DNA from: Fidelibacterota bacterium | Lineage (GTDB): Bacteria > Marinisomatota > Marinisomatia > Marinisomatales > UBA1611 | Direction: 5' to 3' | Assembly (NCBI GenBank): GCA_002722105.1 | Contig: PBKF01000052.1 | Span: forward strand, 1 to 19,750 | Length of the DNA: 19,750 nt | Shown here: piece by piece, positions 3,298 through 17,205 of the stretch | How positions within the stretch are numbered: the first letter of the stretch is position 1 | How the letters are laid out: each line of letters begins with the position of its first letter | Position numbers and translations under genes: made by a program | Notes under the pieces: generated by a model | What the model was told of the DNA's origin: nothing | The model's database searches: none | What the model saw: only the letters and a program-made list of their open reading frames with translations

Positions 3298-4230
3298 ATG
3301 GATATTATTGCAGGCGTAGATGAAGCAGGCCGAGGTCCTTTGGCGGGACCAGTAGTTGCAGCAGCGGTAATTCTTCCTGACAGCCATACTATTGATGGTC
3401 TACGGGACTCTAAAAAGTTGTCGAAAAAGAAACGTAGTGAATTATATAATATAATTTATGATCAAGCAACTGGTGTTGGTGTTGGAGAGGTGGATGTTAA
3501 AACTATTGATCAGATTAATATAAGAGAAGCAACATTGCAGGCAATGCAGATAGCCGTGGGAAATTTACCTAACAGGCCGACTAAGCTTTTAATTGATGGA
3601 CATCCATTGAAAAACCAGGTTATACCCAATGAAGGAATTGTTGGTGGGGATGACCTGATTGATTCAATTAAAGCAGCATCAATTATTGCAAAAGTCCACC
3701 GTGATAAATTGATGGCAGAGTATGGATGTATTTTTCCTGAATACGGATTTGAAAATCATAATGGATATGGAACAGAATTTCATCTAAATGCTCTGAAAGA
3801 AAATAGAGCGACACCTATTCATCGTAGATCTTTCAAACCGGTATCAAATAAAATGCCAACATTATCTTGGCTATCTGAACAAAATAAAATAGGATGGATG
3901 GGTGAAAAATTGGCTGCACTTTATCTTAAGGGTAAAGGTTTTAAAATTGTTGAAATGAATAGAGATTGCTCACCACATGGTGAAATTAATATCATTTCAA
4001 TAGATAAAGACGAAACTGTATTCGTTGAAGTAAAAACAGAATATAAATCAAATTCTGATTTATTATATAAAAAAGTTAATTCTTTAAAACTCCAAAAATT
4101 AGTTAACGCAATCCAATTTTATCAAAATCAAACGGAACAAATCTATACATTTCGAATTGATTTTATATCTGTTGTCTTAGAAAATAAAAATCCAATAATT
4201 AAATATTTTGAAGGAATTAGCGTTGAATAA
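3298..4230 (+). CDS. rnhB: Ribonuclease HII fused to a YraN-like (UPF0102) domain
   Basis: A 310-residue two-domain protein. Residues 1-183 are a full RNase HII, which cuts RNA of RNA-DNA hybrids and starts removal of single ribonucleotides from DNA. GVDEAGRGPLAGPV supplies D8 and E9, LLIDGHP supplies D100, GGDDLIDS supplies D118, and HRRSFKPV (175-182) closes the domain. After a short linker, residues 199-306 match the YraN family of predicted PD-(D/E)XK nucleases: GEKLAALYLKGKGF, then GEINII (228-233), VFVEVKT (241-247) and FRIDFI. The usual Asp in GEIDLI is Asn231 here, so this nuclease may be inactive. rnhB and yraN are commonly neighbours, so fusion is a natural step. The Shine-Dalgarno is weak (AAAGAA). 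Signal peptidase I follows 30 bases downstream. Confidence 0.93.
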   Translation: MDIIAGVDEAGRGPLAGPVVAAAVILPDSHTIDGLRDSKKLSKKKRSELYNIIYDQATGVGVGEVDVKTIDQINIREATLQAMQIAVGNLPNRPTKLLIDGHPLKNQVIPNEGIVGGDDLIDSIKAASIIAKVHRDKLMAEYGCIFPEYGFENHNGYGTEFHLNALKENRATPIHRRSFKPVSNKMPTLSWLSEQNKIGWMGEKLAALYLKGKGFKIVEMNRDCSPHGEINIISIDKDETVFVEVKTEYKSNSDLLYKKVNSLKLQKLVNAIQFYQNQTEQIYTFRIDFISVVLENKNPIIKYFEGISVE

Positions 4231-6673: not shown

Positions 6674-6702
6674 AAAAGGGGGCCGATTTTCGGCCCCTTT
6701 TT
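6674..6702 (+). terminator. Rho-independent terminator
   Basis: AAAAGGGGGCCG (6674-6685) pairs with CGGCCCCTTTTT (6691-6702), giving 12 base pairs with one G-U wobble and the loop ATTTT, then a run of T. It lies 35 bases after the coiled-coil gene and closes the plus-strand run that began at 3298. The arms also read as a weaker terminator on the other strand, but no minus-strand gene ends here. The rest of 6703-6865 has no gene; it is AT-rich leader for the potassium channel. Confidence 0.93.
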
Positions 6703-6868
6703 GCTATATCATCTAACGCAATAATTAATTTCATCTTAATTTTTGCTATGGTTAAACTTTCAAATCATATCCTAATAACTGAGAAGTTTTAACTCTGTAA
6801 TAGGGATTAATTTCCATAGAACTGGATTATTAATATTATTCTGAAAATCATAAACTAAAAAATTATTG

Positions 6869-7858
6869 ATGAAAGATAAAAAATTTTGGATTTTTGTTTA
6901 TTTTATATCCCTCATTATAATTGGTTCTCTAGGGTACTATATTATTGGCGGAAATGATTGGACATTATTAGATAGTCTTTATATGACTATAATTACTCTT
7001 GCATCAGTAGGCTATGGTGAGGTTCATGTTTTAGATAATTACGGAAAAATTTGGTCAATTTTATTAATCATTTTTGGGGTAACTGGTGTTGGTGTATTAT
7101 TTAGAACTATAAATGAAGAATTCATTCAATCACAACGTTTCTGGAAGAAAAAAATGAAAAAAACAATATCAAAACTTAAAAATCACCATATAATATGTGG
7201 ATATGGTAGGATGGGTGCGGTAATAGCAAAAGAATTGAAGGATAAAAATCAAAAATTCTTAATCATTGAAAAAAACGAAGAAAAAGTTGAACAAATTAGA
7301 GATAACGATATGTTGTGCCTTCAAGGAGATGCTACTTCTGAAAAGACATTAAAATCTGCCAACATAGATAAAGCATCTGGAATCGCTGTTGTCCTTAAGA
7401 CAGATCAAGATAATCTCTTTGTCACAATGACCATAAAAACAATTTATCCCGAAATATTTTTATTAAGCCGATGTGCCAAAGAAGATAATCAATCAAAATT
7501 AATTAGAGCCGGTGCAAATAAAGTAATTAATCCATATATCTCGGGAGGCCACAGAATGGCCGAAATCTTAATTAAACCACAGGTTGAAGATTCTATATCA
7601 GTAGTTTCACCAAAAAATTCCAAAATGAATCTCACTATTGATGAAATAAGCTTAAATGATGTTCAGAAATATGATAGTGTTACAATAAAAGAATCTCGTA
7701 TAAGGGAAAAATTTGGAATTTCTATTGTTGGAATTATGGATGATAATGGTAAATCCATAATAAATCCTTTATCAGATCAAATATTAAGATCTAATCAAAC
7801 AATTATTCTTATAGGCGATGTACATAAAATGAATAAATTTAAAGAAGAATTACCATAA
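6869..7858 (+). CDS. Two-TM potassium channel with cytoplasmic RCK domain
   Basis: A 329-residue MthK-like K+ channel subunit. TM1 is about residues 6-26, a pore helix about 33-44, and the selectivity filter S46-V-G-Y-G50 is followed by E51; TM2 is about 60-80. MthK has TVGYGD here, so the filter Thr is Ser. After a basic linker comes a Rossmann-type RCK/TrkA-N domain (IICGYGRMG at 108-116, acidic end of strand 2 in LIIEKN, LQGDAT at about 151-156), then a TrkA-C domain (about 240-329). RCK domains open the pore on binding Ca2+ or nucleotides; the ligand is not evident. A TTG three bases earlier also fits, but ATG at 6869 is the better start. A possible second start lies at 7154. Downstream it converges on the cyclase gene with no GC-rich terminator between. 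Confidence 0.92.
   Translation: MKDKKFWIFVYFISLIIIGSLGYYIIGGNDWTLLDSLYMTIITLASVGYGEVHVLDNYGKIWSILLIIFGVTGVGVLFRTINEEFIQSQRFWKKKMKKTISKLKNHHIICGYGRMGAVIAKELKDKNQKFLIIEKNEEKVEQIRDNDMLCLQGDATSEKTLKSANIDKASGIAVVLKTDQDNLFVTMTIKTIYPEIFLLSRCAKEDNQSKLIRAGANKVINPYISGGHRMAEILIKPQVEDSISVVSPKNSKMNLTIDEISLNDVQKYDSVTIKESRIREKFGISIVGIMDDNGKSIINPLSDQILRSNQTIILIGDVHKMNKFKEELP
7143..7156 (+). promoter_or_regulatory. Possible internal ribosome-binding site and start in the channel gene
   Basis: GGAAG (7143-7147) lies six bases before an in-frame ATG (7154-7156, Met96). The codon falls in the linker between the pore and the RCK domain. Starting there would give a soluble RCK-only polypeptide of 234 residues. 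MthK is known to make such a product from an internal Met107 to complete its octameric gating ring. The sequence also simply encodes WKKKM, so chance is possible. The main start of this gene has a weaker Shine-Dalgarno than this internal one. Confidence 0.4.
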
Positions 7859-7904: not shown

Positions 7905-9479
7905 TTAAGTTACAAGATATGTATTAACATGTCCTATTCCTTTTATATTTGTCTTCTCTTTTAATTTGTATGAATAACGATCCCCTAAAAATGATTTTGT
8001 ATGTTCGGAAATTTGAATACAACCCGGTGGGCAGGTTGTCTCAAGTCGATTGGCCATGTTAACAGAAGCGCCCCATAAATCATAAGCAAATTTATTTTTC
8101 CCGATTATTCCAGCTACAATTGGTCCTGTATGTACCCCGATTCGAATATTTAAATCCATTTCTTTCGTATTTTTATCAATTTGATTAATTGCCTTGATAA
8201 AATCCTTTCCTAGTTCAATTATATCTTTTGCTGATTGAGATTTGTCAGATGTCAGGCCACCTACGGCAAAATAACTATCTCCAATTGTTTTTATTTTTTC
8301 AATATTATGTTTATCGGCAAGTTCATCAAAAGTTTTAAAAATGGTATTTAAGATTTTTACAAGGTTGTTCGGACTTAATACTTGGGCCTGTGGGGTGAAA
8401 TTGATTATGTCACAAAATATTATGGATACATCTTCATGTTTATTTGCTATATCTGTCTCTCCTGACTTTAATCTTTGTGCAATATCTTGAGGTAAAATAT
8501 TTAATAAAAGATGTTCAGATCTGTCTCTTTCTTCTTGAAGCTCGTGCATCAAGATCTTTTCCTTATCCCTTAATTTTTTCTTTTCCATGCATGATGCTAT
8601 TCGTGCATCAAGTATCGATTTCTCAAAGGGCTTTGTTATATAATCATCTGCACCGGCTTCTATGCATCTGTAAATACTATCGGTATCATCCATAGATGAA
8701 ATCATTATGACAGGCAATTCATGGAATCTATTATCACTTCTAATGAATTTTAAAACTTCATACCCATTCATTTCTGGCATGACAATATCCAAAAGGACCA
8801 GATCGGTATCTAAATTAACAGTTAAAGACTCTGTTGCCTCTTTTCCATCGTTAGCTGTAATTACCTCATGCCCCTGTTTTGAGAGTCTCTTTTTGAGTAG
8901 TTGAGTATTGTTTTTATTATCATCCACAACTAATAATTTCCCCAGTATTTTCTGTTTATCTTCCTTTTTATCTATTGGTTGAATGCTATCCATTACATCC
9001 TGTACCATGGAATAATTCCCCACACTGGATCCACCACTTTCTATATTTTCAAAATCACTCTCATTGAATTTTATAATATTATCTAATTCTCTTTCTAATA
9101 AACGACCAGAATCTGATATCCTATGTATGTCCGATTGAAAATTATCAATATCAATTGATTCATAATCTTCTAGCAAAAGCTCAGAATATCCGACAATGGT
9201 ATTTAATGGTTCTCTAATGGCAGTTTCTGTATCCTTTGCGAGAGTAACTAGGGTTTTATTAGGATTTTCTAGAGCTTTATCATCAAAGTTTTGTTCAATT
9301 ATTTCTAGAATTTCTTGTCCAGCTTGATATAATTTATTCAGATCAGATATTGGGCTACTGATTCCTTCATCCTCACAATCTTCTATTAACATTTCACTAT
9401 AGCCAAGAATCGCATTGATAGGGTTTTTGAGGTTGTGTCTAGCCTTACCAAGGTATGCTTCTTTTATTCTTTTATCCAT
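7905..9479 (-). CDS. Adenylate cyclase response regulator with tandem HisKA-like N terminus
   Basis: A 524-residue cytoplasmic protein that should make cAMP. Residues 10-66 and 80-138 are two copies of a histidine-kinase phosphoacceptor helix pair (HNLKNPINAILGYSEMLIED and IREPLNTIVGYSELLLED). The first keeps His15; the second has Thr86 at that place, and no kinase ATPase domain follows. Residues 180-300 are a receiver (D186, D187, phosphoacceptor D231, S261, K283). After the helical linker LLLNILPQDIAQRLKSGE comes a class III cyclase (350-524) with metal ligands D357 and D401. K397 and D467 (YDLWG) are the adenine-selecting residues, and N474 and R478 (transition state) are present. It ends a minus-strand operon, 26 bases after the free receiver gene, so phosphorylation of the receiver likely controls cyclase activity. 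Confidence 0.93.
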   Translation of the reverse strand: MDKRIKEAYLGKARHNLKNPINAILGYSEMLIEDCEDEGISSPISDLNKLYQAGQEILEIIEQNFDDKALENPNKTLVTLAKDTETAIREPLNTIVGYSELLLEDYESIDIDNFQSDIHRISDSGRLLERELDNIIKFNESDFENIESGGSSVGNYSMVQDVMDSIQPIDKKEDKQKILGKLLVVDDNKNNTQLLKKRLSKQGHEVITANDGKEATESLTVNLDTDLVLLDIVMPEMNGYEVLKFIRSDNRFHELPVIMISSMDDTDSIYRCIEAGADDYITKPFEKSILDARIASCMEKKKLRDKEKILMHELQEERDRSEHLLLNILPQDIAQRLKSGETDIANKHEDVSIIFCDIINFTPQAQVLSPNNLVKILNTIFKTFDELADKHNIEKIKTIGDSYFAVGGLTSDKSQSAKDIIELGKDFIKAINQIDKNTKEMDLNIRIGVHTGPIVAGIIGKNKFAYDLWGASVNMANRLETTCPPGCIQISEHTKSFLGDRYSYKLKEKTNIKGIGHVNTYLVT

Positions 9480-9505
9480 TACTTTAGAGAAAGATCACTT
9501 AATTT

Positions 9506-9865
9506 TTAAATAAAGTCCTTTATTTTTCCTAGCAATCTTTTGAATTCAATCGGTTTTGTATCGTACTCATCTGCACCCGCTTCCAGTGCCTTTTCTCTAT
9601 CACCCGCCATTGCATGAGCTGTAAGAACAATAATCGGTATGTCTTTTGTGTTCTGATCTGCCTTAATGGTTGATGTTGCTTGCCATCCGTCCATGACAGG
9701 TAGGCTAAGATCCATTAAAATGATGTCTGGATTCTCACTCTTGGACATGTCTACACCCTTTTGACCATCTTCAGCCATAACTATATCAAAACCCTTCCTT
9801 TGAAGTCTCCTAGATAGCATGTCACGGTTCATTTCATTGTCTTCTACAATTAAGATTTTTATCAT
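9506..9865 (-). CDS. Single-domain response regulator (CheY-like receiver)
   Basis: A 119-residue stand-alone receiver domain with the full active site: acidic pocket E8-D9, phosphoacceptor D52 in ILMDLSLPVMDGW, T82 and K104 in TKP. There is no output domain. It should carry phosphate or act by protein contact, as CheY and Spo0F do. Its start is 5 bases after the stop of the hybrid kinase gene, with GGGG inside the last kinase codons as a possible ribosome site, so translation is likely coupled. Lying between kinase and cyclase, it most plausibly takes phosphate from the kinase and passes it on or competes with the cyclase receiver; that order is inferred. Confidence 0.94.
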   Translation of the reverse strand: MIKILIVEDNEMNRDMLSRRLQRKGFDIVMAEDGQKGVDMSKSENPDIILMDLSLPVMDGWQATSTIKADQNTKDIPIIVLTAHAMAGDREKALEAGADEYDTKPIEFKRLLGKIKDFI

Positions 9866-9870
9866 TTTGG

Positions 9871-12800
9871 TTACCCCATTTTTAATTTTTTAATTTTTTC
9901 ACTTACTTCAGTCATTAATTCCTTTTTGCTGTAAGACCCTTTTTGCATTATGGTCTCTACATTTCCTTTTAGTCTAGCATGATCTTCCTTGGTAAGATCT
10001 TTTGCAGTGATTACAACAACAGGAATGTCTAGCCACTCCTTATTCTCTCTGAGTCTTTCGGAGAACTCAAATCCATCCATTTCAGGCATCATGAGATCTA
10101 ATAAAACAAGGCCAGGCTTACCTTGGCGAACTTTTTCAAGACCTTCCTTACCATTATTTGCTGTTCGAACCTTATACTCGTTATTCTCTAAACTTTTTTT
10201 AAGCATGTCTCTAGTTGTTTCATCATCTTCAACTATCAATATGGACTGAGAGCCTGATTCAATTTCATGATTTTTGAGAATTTCTGATAGTCTTTCCCAG
10301 TCTACAGGTTTCGTCAAATAGTCTGTTGCACCAAGGGAGTAACCTATGTCTGGCTCATCTGCCATTGTTAGCATTATTACTGGGATATTTTTTGTCACAT
10401 CGTTCGCCTGAAGAGCGGCAAGTACCTCCCATCCATCCATCTCGGGCATCATTACATCCAAAGTAATTAGGTCTGGTTTGTGTTTAGCGGCAAGTTGCAG
10501 GCCTTCATCTCCGTTTCTAGCCTGAATGATTAAGTAGTCCTGTTTCTCAAGGAATTTTTTCATCATATCCTGAGCATTAGCATCATCATCAATTACAAGT
10601 ATAGTGTAGTTTGAATCGGTAATTACCTCTTGATTTAACCTATCACTTTCTACCTTTTCTTCCACTACGTTTACTGGTATGGATACGGTAAAGGAAGTTC
10701 CCTTACCTTCCTCTGATTTAAGTCCTATCTCTCCTCCCATCATCTCTGAAAACATCTTGGTGATGGTTAGACCCAGGCCTGTTCCACCAAATTTTCTAGT
10801 TGTTTTTTCATCTGCTTGAGTGAATGGCTGAAATACTTTGCTTACTTGCGCTTTTGTCATTCCAATTCCAGTATCCGAAACGACAAAATCGATTGCATCA
10901 TTAATACTTGTAGAGTTTTTAATTCCAATCGTTATATTTCCTTCTTTAGTGAATTTTGAAGCATTGCTCAAAAGATTCAATAGAATCTGCCGTATTTTAG
11001 TTATGTCAGCTTTCATTGTAGTAATCTCTGTCTTATAATCCACAATAATGGTATTACTATTCTTTTCAACCAATGGTTTTATGGTTGCCTCTATTTCATC
11101 AATCACCTTTTTCAAAGAAAATTCCTCAATATATAGCTCCATCTTTCCAGACTCGACCTTAGAAAGATCCAAGATGTCATTTATTAAACCTAGCAAATGT
11201 TTACCAGAACTATTTATCTTATCTAGGTCTGGGATGAAGTCTTCATTTTCATCCTCTGCGTCTTCAATTAGCATTTCGCTATAACCGATTATGGCATTCA
11301 GTGGAGTTCGCAGTTCATGGCTCATGTTTGCTAAAAATGTACTCTTAGCTTCGTTGGCTGCTTCTGCTGCCTTCTGTGATTCCAGCAGCTCTGAATTTTT
11401 TTCTTCAAGTCTTTCTCTTGCTTCACGATCCTTCTTTTGGGATTCTTCTCTAAGCTTAGCAGATAGTTGTCTTTGCTTGATATATTTATTTGTAGTGAAA
11501 CCAGACATATAAAAAAGAAGTCCTATTAATCCCCAGAATGGAATGGATGTGGGCGGATTTAGATACCAAGGTAGCACTACACTGAACTTTACACCTTTAG
11601 GAGGAGAGTAGTTCAAATCTCTATCAATTGCCTGTATCTGAAATTCATAGTCACCACTATTTTTCGGAATCCAGTCCATTTCGTTACCCGTGAATGGCTT
11701 ACTCCATTTTTCATCATCACCGATTATCCTATATCTATACTTCTGCTTTTGTTGAATAGTATTATAGTTTGCGGCATTAAATGAAAAACGTATTCTATAA
11801 TCTGTCTGCGTTGAAATTTCTTCGTCATTGTTCTTATCAATGAAATATTTATTTTTAGGTGTTGTAACAGAAGAAATGTTAACAAGCCCAGCATTGTTTG
11901 TTGGTGTGTATTGAGAAATACCTCTGGATGTACAGAAAAAGAATTTTTGTCCGGAAATTGAAGTAATTCCATTTATAGTATTTCCAATAAGACCATCTCT
12001 TATGTCAAGAGAACCCCAGACTTCCCCATCGTAAAATGCTACGCCTGCTCCAAAGGTGCCAACCCATACCCTATCATAATCATCAACATAAACATGAAAA
12101 GTCTCTGAAGATGCAAGTCCATCTTCAACATCAAAATGCTCCATGCTTTTACCATCATACTTAAATACTCCCCCTCCATCTGTTGCAATCCAAATATTAC
12201 CTTCCGAGTCTACATCAATGTCATGAGCCCTAGGATCAGTAAGTCCATCTTCTTCGATCAGAGTTTTTGCAATACCATCCTTAAATATCATGACACCAGC
12301 TCCATACTGACCAATGACAATAGAGCCATCTATATTAGAAACTATATCATTGTCATTATTCCATCCTCCAATATTTACCCCTTCTTTTTTGCCGTAGGTT
12401 GTGAAATCATTTCCGTCAAATGAAGTAAGCCCCTTCGATGTTAGAAACCAGACAATTCCATTTTTATCAACACAGATTCCATCTACATTCTCAGATGGCA
12501 TACCATCAGATTCGGTATAATTTTTGAAAATTTTACCATTGAACATAGAAATCCCTCTATTGGTTGCTATCCATAGATTACCATAGTTATCCATACTTAT
12601 ATCTTTTACATTATTGCTTCGTAAGCCATCCTGCATCGTATATATTTTTTTTAATTTTTCATTTTTAATCTCATAAATACCTTGACCGTTGGTACCAACC
12701 CATAATGTTTTCTCTGGATCAACAATCATCCTGCTTTTCAGACTCAGAGGAATACTATCATTAACCGTAAGGTTTCTTATAGATGATGGATCATATTTCC

Positions 12801-14766
12801 ATGCACCATACTGCCAGCCTGCAAACCAATACATTCCATCCTTAGACTTGGCCATTGTAAACATATTAGCTAGCCATTTATCATCGCCCGCTCTTACGGG
12901 ATCTAGTGTATAAAATGTACCATCTTCTCTTAGTTTAGAAATTCCCCTGTTTGTAGATACTAAGATGTCACTATTTTCATCAAAATATATGTCATTTACC
13001 TGTCGAGTATTTAACCCCTTTAGAATAGAACTATTTTTGAATGACATACCATCATAGATAGACAATCCATTGTTAGTGGCAATCCAAATTTCACCTTTAG
13101 GAGATTTAACTATGCTATTAATCACATTTGAAGGAAGCCCATCATAAATATTATAATTTTTGAATTTTTTACCATTGTAGAATACCAATCCATTTTGGGT
13201 ACCGATCCACATGTTATTACCTTCCAGTAATAATGACCGCACTGAACCATTACCTACTCCGTCAGAATAGTTGTAGTTTGTAAAATTTTCACCATCCAAA
13301 ATCGTTAATCCAGCACTACTTCCAAAAATTAATCTACCGTATTCATCTTCTGCTATAGCAACAACACCTTGAATTGGCACATCTTCAGAAAAGTAATAAG
13401 GCGTTATGTTCATTTCAGGATCAATTTTAACTAAACCCAAATCACTTCTTTTAGATGTCGATGCCCCAGCCCATATATTACCTTTTGAATCTTTAAACAA
13501 TTTATTAATTGGTCTTGTTGGGAGACCATCCTTTGGAGTTAGGCTCTTCATTTCAATTCCATTAAAAATGGAAATCCCCGTCCAACAAGCAAACCATATG
13601 TTATTGTCATCATCAATTAGTATATCACTAACCCAGTTGCTTAATAATCCATCGAGGTAGTCTACATTTTCCCATTTACCTCTATCTGGAGTTGGAGTCT
13701 TGAAATCGGCGTTAAGATAATTCTGCTTACTAGGACTTATGTCAAAAATTTTTCTCTTACCTTTTTTATCGTTGAGGTAATAGTCCTTATCAGGATAGGA
13801 AACAAACAGTTCGTAGTTCCCGAATGGTAAATTTTCAAATTTATAACTCCCATCTAAACTTGTATTTGTTATGTTCATTGGTAGACCTCTTTTGTCACCA
13901 ATAAGATTTGCACGAATTCTAGTTCCAGGTTGTGGGTTTTTTCCATCAAGTGATAGAACCTTCCCTTCGATGGATGGTATCTTCCCTACGGTTATCTTAT
14001 AATTTTTTCTGGATCCTGGTTTTATATTATTTATTATCTTGGATGCATATCGATCTTCTCGACCATTAACATAAAGAATGAAATCTTCACTATCACTTCT
14101 TAATCTAAATGCTCTTTCTGCATATCCATTCAAATCAGCAGTCCCACCAGTTTCAAAATAATCATTACCTCTGATTTGAAAACCAGCAAAAGGAATTGGA
14201 TTTCCGCTTTTATCAATAAATTGAAATGTCATTTCCACCCTTTTTTCATCCACCATGAAAAAACCAAATCCAAAATGATCAGAGTTCTTTAAAGACACAA
14301 TAAGTTGATTTCTCCCTTTTTTTATTTTTTTTCTAAAAATTCCCTTTGATTGTTCGTATTGCTTATGAATTTCTTCACCATTCAGATAGACTAACTGACT
14401 TTTTGTCTGATAAAAAGCATTCAATATAGCTATTTCAGTGTTCTTAGTAGAAAATACTTCTGCAACACCAATCACATAATCATTTTCCTTAAGGTCATTG
14501 TAAAGTTGTCCTATGAAATTAAATTCACCACTAGTGGTTGCATCTTTTATAATGTAATTTTTTCCATCATGAATAAAAACTGAGTCATCCCCAATTCCAT
14601 TTTCAAGTATAAGATTTAGTATTTCACTGTGGATATCTTCTGAATCAATGGGACCAACTAATGACCAGTTAGAAATTGCTGCTTCTGTCCCAATTCTGTT
14701 TGTGTTTGCTCTTTCAGCAAATGTCATTGCCACTAGAATCAAGATTATTAAAATATTTTTCTTCAT
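9871..14766 (-). CDS. Hybrid sensor kinase with periplasmic propeller (HTCS-like, no AraC domain)
   Basis: A 1631-residue one-TM hybrid kinase. A signal peptide (1-18) is followed by an unassigned beta-rich region (about 30-260, perhaps a jelly-roll), a carboxypeptidase-regulatory-like Ig fold (263-356), and 14 Reg_prop repeats (375-955, each close to IWIATNNGLSIYDG). Next are a Y_Y_Y domain (about 985-1066), TM (1074-1091) and a coiled coil (1098-1140). The HisKA has H1150 in SHELRTP; the HATPase has N1268, DTGIG from D1298 and GGTGLG. Two receivers follow, with D1437 and D1557. Fourteen repeats make two seven-blade propellers, as in Bacteroidetes HTCS sensors that often bind glycans. Those end in an AraC DNA-binding domain, which is absent here. 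Start: ATG with AGGA about 10 bases upstream, 33 bases after leuS. The ligand is unknown. Confidence 0.95.
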   Translation of the reverse strand: MKKNILIILILVAMTFAERANTNRIGTEAAISNWSLVGPIDSEDIHSEILNLILENGIGDDSVFIHDGKNYIIKDATTSGEFNFIGQLYNDLKENDYVIGVAEVFSTKNTEIAILNAFYQTKSQLVYLNGEEIHKQYEQSKGIFRKKIKKGRNQLIVSLKNSDHFGFGFFMVDEKRVEMTFQFIDKSGNPIPFAGFQIRGNDYFETGGTADLNGYAERAFRLRSDSEDFILYVNGREDRYASKIINNIKPGSRKNYKITVGKIPSIEGKVLSLDGKNPQPGTRIRANLIGDKRGLPMNITNTSLDGSYKFENLPFGNYELFVSYPDKDYYLNDKKGKRKIFDISPSKQNYLNADFKTPTPDRGKWENVDYLDGLLSNWVSDILIDDDNNIWFACWTGISIFNGIEMKSLTPKDGLPTRPINKLFKDSKGNIWAGASTSKRSDLGLVKIDPEMNITPYYFSEDVPIQGVVAIAEDEYGRLIFGSSAGLTILDGENFTNYNYSDGVGNGSVRSLLLEGNNMWIGTQNGLVFYNGKKFKNYNIYDGLPSNVINSIVKSPKGEIWIATNNGLSIYDGMSFKNSSILKGLNTRQVNDIYFDENSDILVSTNRGISKLREDGTFYTLDPVRAGDDKWLANMFTMAKSKDGMYWFAGWQYGAWKYDPSSIRNLTVNDSIPLSLKSRMIVDPEKTLWVGTNGQGIYEIKNEKLKKIYTMQDGLRSNNVKDISMDNYGNLWIATNRGISMFNGKIFKNYTESDGMPSENVDGICVDKNGIVWFLTSKGLTSFDGNDFTTYGKKEGVNIGGWNNDNDIVSNIDGSIVIGQYGAGVMIFKDGIAKTLIEEDGLTDPRAHDIDVDSEGNIWIATDGGGVFKYDGKSMEHFDVEDGLASSETFHVYVDDYDRVWVGTFGAGVAFYDGEVWGSLDIRDGLIGNTINGITSISGQKFFFCTSRGISQYTPTNNAGLVNISSVTTPKNKYFIDKNNDEEISTQTDYRIRFSFNAANYNTIQQKQKYRYRIIGDDEKWSKPFTGNEMDWIPKNSGDYEFQIQAIDRDLNYSPPKGVKFSVVLPWYLNPPTSIPFWGLIGLLFYMSGFTTNKYIKQRQLSAKLREESQKKDREARERLEEKNSELLESQKAAEAANEAKSTFLANMSHELRTPLNAIIGYSEMLIEDAEDENEDFIPDLDKINSSGKHLLGLINDILDLSKVESGKMELYIEEFSLKKVIDEIEATIKPLVEKNSNTIIVDYKTEITTMKADITKIRQILLNLLSNASKFTKEGNITIGIKNSTSINDAIDFVVSDTGIGMTKAQVSKVFQPFTQADEKTTRKFGGTGLGLTITKMFSEMMGGEIGLKSEEGKGTSFTVSIPVNVVEEKVESDRLNQEVITDSNYTILVIDDDANAQDMMKKFLEKQDYLIIQARNGDEGLQLAAKHKPDLITLDVMMPEMDGWEVLAALQANDVTKNIPVIMLTMADEPDIGYSLGATDYLTKPVDWERLSEILKNHEIESGSQSILIVEDDETTRDMLKKSLENNEYKVRTANNGKEGLEKVRQGKPGLVLLDLMMPEMDGFEFSERLRENKEWLDIPVVVITAKDLTKEDHARLKGNVETIMQKGSYSKKELMTEVSEKIKKLKMG

Positions 14767-14799: not shown

Positions 14800-17205
14800 T
14801 CATGATACTATGATGTTAATTATCCTTCCAGGTATGTAAATAATTTTCCTCAATTCACCAGTTTCCAAATATTTTTTCCCAAAGGATGTTTCCCCTACTA
14901 TTTTAAATGCATCAGTTTCCTGAGTATCTTTAAGGATCTTTATGGTTCCCCTAGTTTTTCCATTAAATTGTACTGCAAGGGTGATTTTCTGATCAGAAAA
15001 TAGATTTTCATCATGTACTGGCCACTGAGCGCTCGTAATTGGTTCATATCCTAGTTTTTCATTTAATTCTTCAGCTATGTGAGGAGCAAATGGGTTCAAT
15101 AGAATTAAGAATTCATGTAAAACTTTCTTATCAAATTTTTCAAGTGTATTTAAATGATTGGTAAATATCATTAACTGAGAAACAGCAGTATTGAATCTAA
15201 GGTCACCAAGATCAAGAGTCACTTTTTTGATTGTCTGGTGTAATAGCTTAATGGTCTCTTGATCAGAACAATTTTCTTTTATAATTTTATTTTGATTATG
15301 AAAAAGACGCCAGACTTTCTGAAGAAATCTATAACATCCTTGTAGACCTGTTGTGCTCCAGGGTTTTGATTTCTCTAGTGGGCCCATAAACATCTCATAA
15401 AGTCGAAAACTATCCGCACCATAGTCATTAACTACATCATCAGGATTGATAACATTTCCGCGGGATTTACTCATTTTTAATCCATCTTCACCCTGTATCA
15501 TACCCTGATTAAATAACTTTTTGAATGGTTCCTTTGTGGATACCAGACCTAGGTCAAATAAAACATGATGCCAAAAGCGTGAGTATAAAAGATGTAGCAC
15601 TGCATGCTCAACACCACCAATATATAAGTCAACAGGCATCCAGTATGACTCTTCATCCTTTCCCCAAGCTAGTTTTTCATTGTTTGGATCCGTAAATCGC
15701 AGGAAATACCAGCATGAACCAGCCCATTGTGGCATGGTATTCGTTTCTCTTTTCCCTTCTTTTAATTTAACCCATTCTTTTATATTTGCTAGAGGAGATT
15801 CTCCAGTTTCAGCTGGTAAATATTTATCAACTTGTGGAAGAGTAAGCGGAAGATCTGATTCATTTATCGTAATAATACTCCCATCGGATTTATGTATTAC
15901 AGGTATGGGCTCCCCCCAATATCTTTGGCGAGAGAATAACCAATCTCTTAGCTTATACTGTGTGGATGCTTCTCCCTTACCAACCTTTTCTAACCATTTG
16001 ATTGTAGACAGAATAGCCTTTGAAACCTTTTTTCCATTTAAGTTAAGACCTTCATTATTTGATGAATTTATCATCATACCATTAAGATTATCAGTATAGG
16101 CATTTTCCCTAATATTACCACCAGAGACAACTTCCACTATAGGTAAATCATATTCCTTGGCAAATTCATAATCACGCTGATCATGTCCAGGAACCGCCAT
16201 TATAGCACCAGTTCCATAACTCATTAATACATAATCAGCCACCCAGATCGGTATTTCTTCTCCATTCACGGGGTTAATTGCAAATGCATCTAATGCCACG
16301 CCAGTTTTGTCCTTGTTTAACTCCCCTCTATCCAAATCACTTTTTCTTTTAGCTGTTTCAACATAAGAAAAAACTTTATTTTTGTTTGAATTCGACACAA
16401 GCCGTTCAACCAAAGGATGCTCTGGTGCTAAAACTAAATAGGTAGCTCCAAATAGAGTATCTGGCCTTGTAGTATATACTGTAATATTAGAATTTATACT
16501 TGATAAGCTAAAGTGTACATTGGCCCCTTTTGATTTGCCAATCCAATTTCTCTGTAGATCTTTTACACTTTCAGGCCAATCTAAATCATCTAACCCTTCT
16601 AGTAATGATTCAGCGTAATCAGTAATCTTTAGCATCCACTGACGCATTGGTTGCTGAATCACAGGATGTCCACCAATTTCCGATTTACCATCAACAACTT
16701 CTTCATTGGCAAGGACAGCTTTTAATTCTGGACACCAATTGACAGGTATTTCTGCTTCATATGCCAAACCTTTTTTATGCAATTGTAAAAATATCCACTG
16801 GGTCCACCTATAGTAATTTTTATCAGTTGTATTTATTTCTCTGTCCCAATCATAAGAAAAACCAAGCATTTTAATCTGCCGCTTGAAGTTTTTTATATTA
16901 TTTTCAGTTGTTTCTCTTGGATGGGTACCTGATTTAATTGCGTATTGTTCAGCAGGAAGTCCAAAAGCATCCCAACCCATGGGGTGTAATACATTAAAAC
17001 CTTGGAGACGTTTAAATCGGCAGTATATATCGGTAGCTGTATATCCTAGAGGGTGACCGACATGGAGTCCGGTTCCTGAAGGATATGGAAACATATCCAG
17101 GACATATAATTTTTCCCTTTTCGGGTCAATTACCGCCTTGAATGTTTTGTTTTCATCCCAAAATTTTTGCCATTTGGCTTCTATTAGTAAATGATCGTAG
17201 TTCAT
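14800..17205 (-). CDS. leuS: Leucyl-tRNA synthetase
   Basis: An 801-residue class Ia aminoacyl-tRNA synthetase that charges tRNA-Leu, close to the length of the Bacillus enzyme. The HIGH motif is HVGH (48-51) within FPYPSGTGLHVGHPLGYTA, and KMSKS is at 577-581. Between them is the CP1 editing domain, which hydrolyses mischarged tRNA, recognised by TTRPDTLFGATYLVLAPEHP and YGTGAIMAVPGHDQRD with its conserved Asp. The anticodon-binding and C-terminal domains complete it. The N terminus (KWQKFW, then LYVLDMFPYPSG) matches the family, so the ATG is right, yet the T-tract of a terminator hairpin lies immediately before it and there is no normally spaced Shine-Dalgarno. The kinase gene begins 33 bases downstream on the same strand. 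Confidence 0.98.
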   Translation of the reverse strand: MNYDHLLIEAKWQKFWDENKTFKAVIDPKREKLYVLDMFPYPSGTGLHVGHPLGYTATDIYCRFKRLQGFNVLHPMGWDAFGLPAEQYAIKSGTHPRETTENNIKNFKRQIKMLGFSYDWDREINTTDKNYYRWTQWIFLQLHKKGLAYEAEIPVNWCPELKAVLANEEVVDGKSEIGGHPVIQQPMRQWMLKITDYAESLLEGLDDLDWPESVKDLQRNWIGKSKGANVHFSLSSINSNITVYTTRPDTLFGATYLVLAPEHPLVERLVSNSNKNKVFSYVETAKRKSDLDRGELNKDKTGVALDAFAINPVNGEEIPIWVADYVLMSYGTGAIMAVPGHDQRDYEFAKEYDLPIVEVVSGGNIRENAYTDNLNGMMINSSNNEGLNLNGKKVSKAILSTIKWLEKVGKGEASTQYKLRDWLFSRQRYWGEPIPVIHKSDGSIITINESDLPLTLPQVDKYLPAETGESPLANIKEWVKLKEGKRETNTMPQWAGSCWYFLRFTDPNNEKLAWGKDEESYWMPVDLYIGGVEHAVLHLLYSRFWHHVLFDLGLVSTKEPFKKLFNQGMIQGEDGLKMSKSRGNVINPDDVVNDYGADSFRLYEMFMGPLEKSKPWSTTGLQGCYRFLQKVWRLFHNQNKIIKENCSDQETIKLLHQTIKKVTLDLGDLRFNTAVSQLMIFTNHLNTLEKFDKKVLHEFLILLNPFAPHIAEELNEKLGYEPITSAQWPVHDENLFSDQKITLAVQFNGKTRGTIKILKDTQETDAFKIVGETSFGKKYLETGELRKIIYIPGRIINIIVS

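What the first reader, a model, noticed from the sequence alone, without database searches (positions are those of the whole stretch)
7905..14766. Periplasmic propeller kinase wired to a cAMP cyclase instead of a DNA-binding domain
Seen: one minus-strand operon (5- and 26-base gaps) holds a hybrid kinase with 14 Reg_prop repeats, Y_Y_Y, HisKA, HATPase and two receivers; then a free receiver; then a receiver-class III cyclase. Known: Bacteroidetes HTCS proteins with this periplasmic build usually end in an AraC-type DNA-binding domain and directly activate carbohydrate genes. Inferred: here the output module has been replaced by a relay to adenylate cyclase, so an outside ligand would set cAMP level. 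Four receivers in three proteins allow branching or a phosphate sink.
Basis: partly seen in the sequence, partly recalled or inferred. Interest (0 to 1): 0.72.

Follow-up and report, generated by a model that had tools for sequence, protein, structure and literature searches.

The report
Sensor-swapped phosphorelay switching a cAMP cyclase
A marine bacterium carries a three-gene relay, also found with other sensors in distant bacteria such as Sinorhizobium, in which a kinase probably passes phosphate through a free receiver and a histidine bundle built into the cyclase to control cAMP.

Summary
In detail: three minus-strand genes (gaps 5 and 26 nt) encode a propeller hybrid kinase with two receivers, a free receiver, and a receiver-class III cyclase. 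The window is Marinimicrobia-like, not Bacteroidetes. Kinase, free receiver and cyclase are contiguous and co-directional in 11 of 13 cyclase-positive Marinimicrobia genomes; five of these have a GAF sensor instead of the propeller. Sinorhizobium meliloti pSymB has the cassette with a third sensor. The kinase core groups with other cassette kinases, far from the two propeller-AraC (HTCS) kinases tested: a cassette that acquired a propeller, not an HTCS that lost AraC. The DHp pair models as one confident four-helix bundle. In 298 two-hairpin homologs the His is in the first hairpin only (111), the second only (154) or both (33), never neither; about five changes on a tree. Best reading: the bundle is a built-in single-chain phosphotransfer domain, so kinase, receiver, bundle His, cyclase Asp, then cAMP and CRP. 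Phosphotransfer and cyclase control are inferred, not shown. New variant of a known kind.

The parts
9871..14766 (-). hybrid histidine kinase, 1631 aa: N-terminal signal-like segment, CarboxypepD_reg-like region, 14-blade Reg_prop, Y_Y_Y, short hydrophobic segment, HisKA, HATPase, REC, REC
11767..13656 (-). double propeller sensor (residues 371-1000)
   Evidence: PDB kin 4a2l (E 3e-37) and 3v9f (E 7.5e-34), Bacteroides HTCS sensors by recalled identity
11599..11751 (-). Y_Y_Y domain (residues 1006-1056)
11494..11547 (-). putative membrane segment (about residues 1074-1091); no 19-residue stretch of the protein scored over 1.6
   Evidence: inferred from the position after Y_Y_Y
11146..11349 (-). 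kinase HisKA/DHp (residues 1140-1207), His1150 in SHELRTP
10672..11007 (-). HATPase_c (residues 1254-1365)
10276..10602 (-). kinase receiver 1 (residues 1389-1497)
9874..10245 (-). kinase receiver 2 (about residues 1508-1631)
   Evidence: two Response_reg stretches; limits as cut
9506..9865 (-). free single-domain receiver, 119 aa, Asp52 by count in the translation
7905..9479 (-). DHp-DHp-REC-class III cyclase, 524 aa
9288..9473 (-). cyclase DHp hairpin 1 (residues 3-64), His15 in HNLKNP
9435..9437 (-). codon of His15, proposed phosphotransfer histidine
   Evidence: His in 108 of 110 rows, the other 2 gapped there
9072..9251 (-). cyclase DHp hairpin 2 (residues 77-136); the His position is Thr86
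8580..8939 (-). cyclase receiver (residues 181-300), Asp231 in 110 of 110 rows
7908..8447 (-). class III cyclase domain (residues 345-524): Asp357, Lys397, Asp401, Asp467, Asn474, Arg478

Best explanation
The three genes are one phosphorelay ending in cAMP, and the propeller is one of several interchangeable sensors on a conserved cassette. Proposed working: ligand binding to the periplasmic double propeller sets the activity of the kinase (inferred). Phosphate goes from kinase His1150 to a receiver (the kinase's own or the free one; which is not known). It then passes to His15 of the tandem DHp bundle at the front of the cyclase, which acts as a built-in single-chain histidine phosphotransfer domain (inferred from anatomy and from the His pattern), and then to Asp231 of the cyclase receiver, changing cyclase output (inferred). 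cAMP then acts through CRP-type regulators encoded elsewhere in such genomes (inferred). Shown: gene order, domain anatomy, conserved catalytic and phospho-site residues, conservation of the cassette with different sensors, kinship of the kinase core with cassette kinases, and retention of at least one bundle His.
For: Order kinase > free receiver > cyclase contiguous on one strand in 11 of 13 cyclase-positive genomes, 3 of these with the kinase cut by the contig end. Same order with DHp-DHp-REC-cyclase in S. meliloti (two strains) and R. gallicum, 3 of 10 plasmid loci examined. In the 3 relatives with full propeller kinases the sensors are 34-41% identical to the window's, the kinase core 67-74%, the free receiver 76-91%. 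Kinase core in a 99* set with cassette kinases. Bundle model pLDDT 92.1, pTM 0.86. His state in 298 two-hairpin homologs: first only 111, second only 154, both 33, neither 0. Cyclase residues align with the metal and adenine residues of AC9 (roles recalled). CRP-sized proteins with GE(x8)RSA in 10 of the 10 genomes from which I read one, out of 13 positive genomes.
Against: No biochemistry. The His pattern rests on about five changes of state on the tree, so the effective sample is small, and the homologs are the best 120 listed of each of three searches. Other framework positions also vary: Pro is in both hairpins in 283 of 298, Glu in 249, Gly in 216, but Asn in only 120, mostly lost from the first hairpin. 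Cassettes with REC-cyclase and no DHp exist (L002, L004, L012; L119, L125), so the bundle is not always needed. The bundle's fold matches are generic helical bundles; no bacterial kinase DHp or HPt is among the 50 rows shown in each list. L105 has the free receiver and a kinase on the strand opposite the cyclase, and L111 has no cassette. Each of the 13 positive genomes has 2-12 class III cyclase matches, so this cyclase need not dominate cAMP.
Confidence: 0.6

Rival explanations
1. The DHp bundle is a docking or phosphatase platform, not a phosphotransfer step: the kinase or its receivers act directly on Asp231, and the bundle recruits receivers or removes phosphate (H-x-x-x-N/T as in bifunctional kinases, recalled).
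For: DHp surfaces bind receivers in general (recalled); HNLKN keeps an Asn four residues after His; cassettes without DHp exist.
Against: A docking role does not need the His, yet it is kept in one hairpin or the other in 298 of 298 two-hairpin homologs.
Confidence: 0.22
2. The bundle His is phosphorylated directly, in trans, by the ATPase domain of the hybrid kinase, like a second substrate DHp; the receivers of the kinase are regulatory.
For: Hairpin 1 is close to the kinase's own DHp in sequence (NAILGYSEMLIED against NAIIGYSEMLIED).
Against: The acidic residue next to His, important for autokinase chemistry by recalled knowledge, is Asn in 109 of 109 first-hairpin-only rows of the window's search group. 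This is lineage-limited: it is Asp or Glu in 114 of 114 rows of the S. meliloti group and in most of the Beggiatoa group.
Confidence: 0.08
3. One reading: an HTCS that lost its AraC domain and gained a relay to a cyclase.
For: The sensor is related to Bacteroides HTCS sensors.
Against: The kinase core groups with cassette kinases and not with the two HTCS kinases in the tree; the cassette exists with other sensors.
Confidence: 0.04
4. The free receiver and kinase receivers are mainly a phosphate sink and the cyclase is controlled by something else; the neighbours are only co-transcribed.
For: Kinase plus free receiver occur with no cyclase found next to them in 4 of 10 plasmid loci (L120-L123).
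Against: Conserved three-gene order in Marinimicrobia and rhizobia.
Confidence: 0.06

Closest known systems
Bacteroides hybrid two-component systems (HTCS; sensor structures PDB 4a2l, 3v9f, identity recalled)
   Same: periplasmic double Reg_prop propeller with Y_Y_Y, HisKA, HATPase, receiver
   Different: no AraC-type DNA-binding domain; two receivers; kinase core from another lineage
CyaC of Spirulina, a phosphotransfer-controlled class III adenylate cyclase (Kasahara and Ohmori 1999, seen only as a title in the reference list of PMC1183210)
   Different: CyaC is one polypeptide with kinase and receivers (recalled); here three proteins with a DHp bundle before the receiver
PhyT/SdrG relay of Sphingomonas (PMC5898713, abstract and outline seen)
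   Same: kinase > single-domain receiver > protein acting as phosphotransferase through a conserved His > receiver
   Different: PhyT is a separate membrane protein feeding PhyR; here the phosphotransfer module would be fused to the cyclase and built from tandem hairpins
Spo0B and ChpT (recalled, not compared here)
   Same: DHp-derived phosphotransferases without kinase activity
   Different: they are homodimers with two His; here one chain carries both hairpins, usually with one His

Membership tests
HTCS | periplasmic Reg_prop/Y_Y_Y sensor | tested here: met
HTCS | HisKA, HATPase and receiver in the same chain | tested here: met
HTCS | C-terminal AraC-type helix-turn-helix in the same chain | tested here: not met
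   none listed at E up to 1; found in 3 of 3 HTCS controls
HTCS | kinase core groups with HTCS kinases | tested here: not met
   two HTCS only; the third (L126) did not pass the inclusion cut
two-component-controlled class III adenylate cyclase | receiver with phospho-Asp joined to the cyclase domain | tested here: met
   Asp231 in 110 of 110
two-component-controlled class III adenylate cyclase | metal, adenine and transition-state residues present | tested here: met
   invariant in 50 of 50; aligned with AC9; roles recalled
two-component-controlled class III adenylate cyclase | activity changes on phosphorylation | not testable with these tools
   needs an enzyme assay
DHp-type histidine phosphotransferase | helical hairpins forming a four-helix bundle without an ATPase domain | tested here: met
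   predicted model only
DHp-type histidine phosphotransferase | conserved phospho-accepting His | tested here: met
DHp-type histidine phosphotransferase | fold match to solved DHp or HPt proteins | tested here: inconclusive
DHp-type histidine phosphotransferase | phosphate received from and given to receivers | not testable with these tools
   needs radiolabel or Phos-tag assay

The most novel reading that the evidence does not exclude
The tandem DHp bundle is a distinct class of histidine phosphotransfer domain: a homodimeric kinase DHp fused into one chain, so that a single His is enough and either half may lose it. It is wired into a class III cyclase and carried by distant bacteria in a kinase/free receiver/cyclase cassette whose sensor is swapped.
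Probability: 0.5. Interest if true: 0.68.

Novelty: new variant of a known kind. Interest (0 to 1): 0.57.

Why it matters
If true, the phosphotransfer partner of a hybrid kinase is fused to the output enzyme, and an external signal would set cAMP through a defined relay. The same cassette sits on S. meliloti pSymB, and a strain lacking all 28 class III cyclase genes annotated in S. meliloti Rm2011 is described (PMC13001267, passages; I did not check that the cassette cyclase is among the 28). The idea can therefore be tested in one laboratory species without culturing the marine host. Retention of the His in either half of a fused dimer would also record how a homodimeric phosphotransfer module becomes single-chain.

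Tried and rejected

Rows left out of counts: one search used 109 of 120 hits plus the window. Searches used 298 of 360 homologs (left out: 22 with no hairpin found, all 307-484 aa; 16 with one; 23 with three or more; 1 with other spacing). One search kept 45 of 109 other kinases, the best scoring, and the Bacteroides HTCS L126 fell below the cut.
Full report
What is there. The window is Marinimicrobia-like: cyclase homologs P0037 and P0057 carry that name, P0104 is labelled Euryarchaeota and most are unnamed, and neighbouring genes match L101 and L102. Three minus-strand genes with 5- and 26-nt gaps encode a kinase of 1631 aa with Reg_prop, Y_Y_Y, HisKA, HATPase and two receivers; a single receiver of 119 aa; and a receiver-class III cyclase of 524 aa. 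leuS lies 33 nt upstream of the kinase on the same strand. The 14 blades are 11 by regex plus 3 by eye.

What was missed. The cyclase starts with two HisKA-like stretches and has no ATPase domain. The first carries HNLKNP; His15 is present in 108 of 110 aligned rows, the other two being gapped there. The second has no His. AlphaFold2 on residues 1-145 with 49 homologs gives four long helices at mean pLDDT 92.1 and pTM 0.86, that is, two hairpins predicted as one compact domain. The receiver Asp231 is in 110 of 110 rows. The cyclase domain has Asp357, Lys397, Asp401, Asp467, Asn474 and Arg478 invariant in 50 of 50. They align with the two halves of AC9; by recalled roles this is an adenylate, not guanylate, pattern.

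Conservation of the unit. A search of 245 genomes of the phylum of G001 found the cyclase in 13 at E up to 1e-60. In 11 of the 13 the kinase (3 of them cut by the contig end), free receiver and cyclase are contiguous and co-directional (L098, L100-L104, L106-L110). In L105 the free receiver and a kinase lie on the strand opposite the cyclase. L111 has a receiver-cyclase without the cassette. In L101, L102 and L104 the kinase has the propeller; in L106-L110 it has a GAF domain instead. Identity to the window in L101, L102 and L104: propeller sensor 34-41%, kinase core 67-74%, free receiver 76-91%. So the chassis is conserved and the sensor varies.

Beyond the phylum. The free receiver matches 88 plasmid records at E up to 1e-30, 67 of them Sinorhizobium. 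I examined 10 loci, two of them S. meliloti strains. Of these, 3 (S. meliloti RCAM1750 and 1021, R. gallicum) have kinase(REC-REC), free receiver, DHp-DHp-REC-cyclase. 2 (Pararhizobium A13, R. sullae) have REC-cyclase without DHp. 4 (Indioceanicola, Azospirillum, Paracoccus, Aureimonas) have kinase and free receiver with no cyclase found next to them. 1 (Herpetosiphon) has only the free receiver by this test. The S. meliloti RCAM1750 and Aureimonas loci carry a DUF3365 sensor gene, Tll0287-like by Pfam in the former. From the genome scan, L002, L004 and L012 have the cassette without DHp; L001 has free receiver and DHp-DHp-REC-cyclase, with no kinase recognised in its short upstream stretch; L008/L009 fuse receiver-DHp-DHp-receiver behind a hybrid kinase, and L009 ends in PAS-PAS-REC, not a cyclase.

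Origin of the kinase. In a tree of 69 kinase cores (DHp plus ATPase) the window kinase lies in a 99*-supported set of 26: the 22 labelled cassette kinases (some from loci with only kinase and free receiver) and 4 others, one of them L105, which also adjoins a free receiver. The two HTCS kinases (Hymenobacter, Runella) stand on a branch of 2.04. HTCS controls have the AraC domain in 3 of 3; the window protein does not. The propeller itself is related to HTCS sensors in the PDB. Of 8 plasmid records matching the propeller, 3 are annotated as hybrid kinase/transcription factor, 1 as diguanylate cyclase, 1 as adenylate/guanylate cyclase, 1 as sensor kinase and 2 only as propeller proteins. The reading is sensor swap into a cassette, not output swap in an HTCS. 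Limits: two HTCS, quick tree, sequences chosen by BLAST with the window core, 45 of 109 other kinases kept.

The bundle histidine. Three homolog searches listed 360 proteins, the best 120 each. 298 have exactly two hairpins at the expected spacing. His is in the first only in 111, second only in 154, both in 33, neither in 0. Framework positions near it: Pro is in both hairpins in 283 of 298, Glu in 249, Gly in 216, but Asn in only 120. So loss from one hairpin is not peculiar to His; what is peculiar is that the losses fall in either half, depending on the lineage, and never in both. The window's search group keeps the first in 109 of 110, the S. meliloti group the second in 114 of 114, the Beggiatoa group is mixed (33 both, 39 second, 2 first) and some members have four to six hairpins. 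In 33 clusters at 60% identity, none lacks both against 6.06 expected if independent (3.1e-6 by hypergeometric count). That figure ignores kinship: the REC-cyclase tree of 46 rows needs only 5 changes of state. The fair statement is about five changes, never to no His, and long conservation of the remaining one. A docking role would not need this; a phosphotransfer role would. Next to His stands Asn in the window's group (109 of 109) and mostly Asp in the other two groups, consistent with loss of autokinase chemistry in that group only. Fold comparison of the bundle is uninformative: generic bundles, and PDK4 at rank 46.

Mechanism. Most likely: sensor, kinase His1150, a receiver (own or free), bundle His15, cyclase Asp231, altered cAMP, CRP. 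The PhyT/SdrG relay (PMC5898713, abstract and outline) is a demonstrated precedent for kinase, single-domain receiver, phosphotransferase with a conserved His, receiver. CyaC is a precedent for phosphotransfer control of a class III cyclase (title in a reference list). For the output, PF00027 proteins occur in all 13 positive genomes. I read 11 of these proteins from 10 genomes: in each of the 10 genomes one CRP-sized protein has GE(x8)RSA and SRETVSR, matching E. coli CRP by recall; the eleventh (L134, 168 aa) has the first motif only. Against dominance of this cyclase: 2-12 class III cyclase matches per positive genome.

Verdict. Ordinary parts: propeller kinase, receiver-cyclase and free receiver are each known kinds. 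Unusual parts: a fused DHp pair as a probable built-in phosphotransfer module on a cyclase, retention of one His in either half, and a cassette with swapped sensors that includes a genetically tractable species. I saw no description in the listings searched, which cover open-licence PMC only.

Noticed in passing
14800-17205; L101, L102, L106-L110, L098: leuS adjoins the cassette in two Marinimicrobia groups but on opposite sides: upstream of the kinase in the window, L101 and L102, downstream of the cyclase in L106-L110 and L098. Unexplained.
   Followed up: partly
6866-7858; L101 9919-10914; L103 2529-3527: A potassium channel gene (Ion_trans_2, TrkA_N, TrkA_C) lies convergent to the cyclase in the window and two relatives; no cyclic-nucleotide domain was listed.
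   Followed up: partly
L013 7442-11380; L129 4354-7380: Reg_prop and Y_Y_Y (below its cut-off in L129) in one chain with a class III cyclase and no kinase, in a Flavobacteriales MAG and on a Treponema saccharophilum plasmid.
   Followed up: partly
proteins P0243, P0244 and others: Beggiatoa-group cyclases with four to six DHp hairpins, that is two or three bundles in a row.
   Followed up: partly
3298-4230: One ORF fuses RNase HII and UPF0102.
   Followed up: no
6679-6697: A GC-rich terminator-like hairpin (8 pairs, 7 GC) on the minus strand, about 1.2 kb past the end of the cyclase gene and beyond the potassium channel ORF.
   Followed up: no
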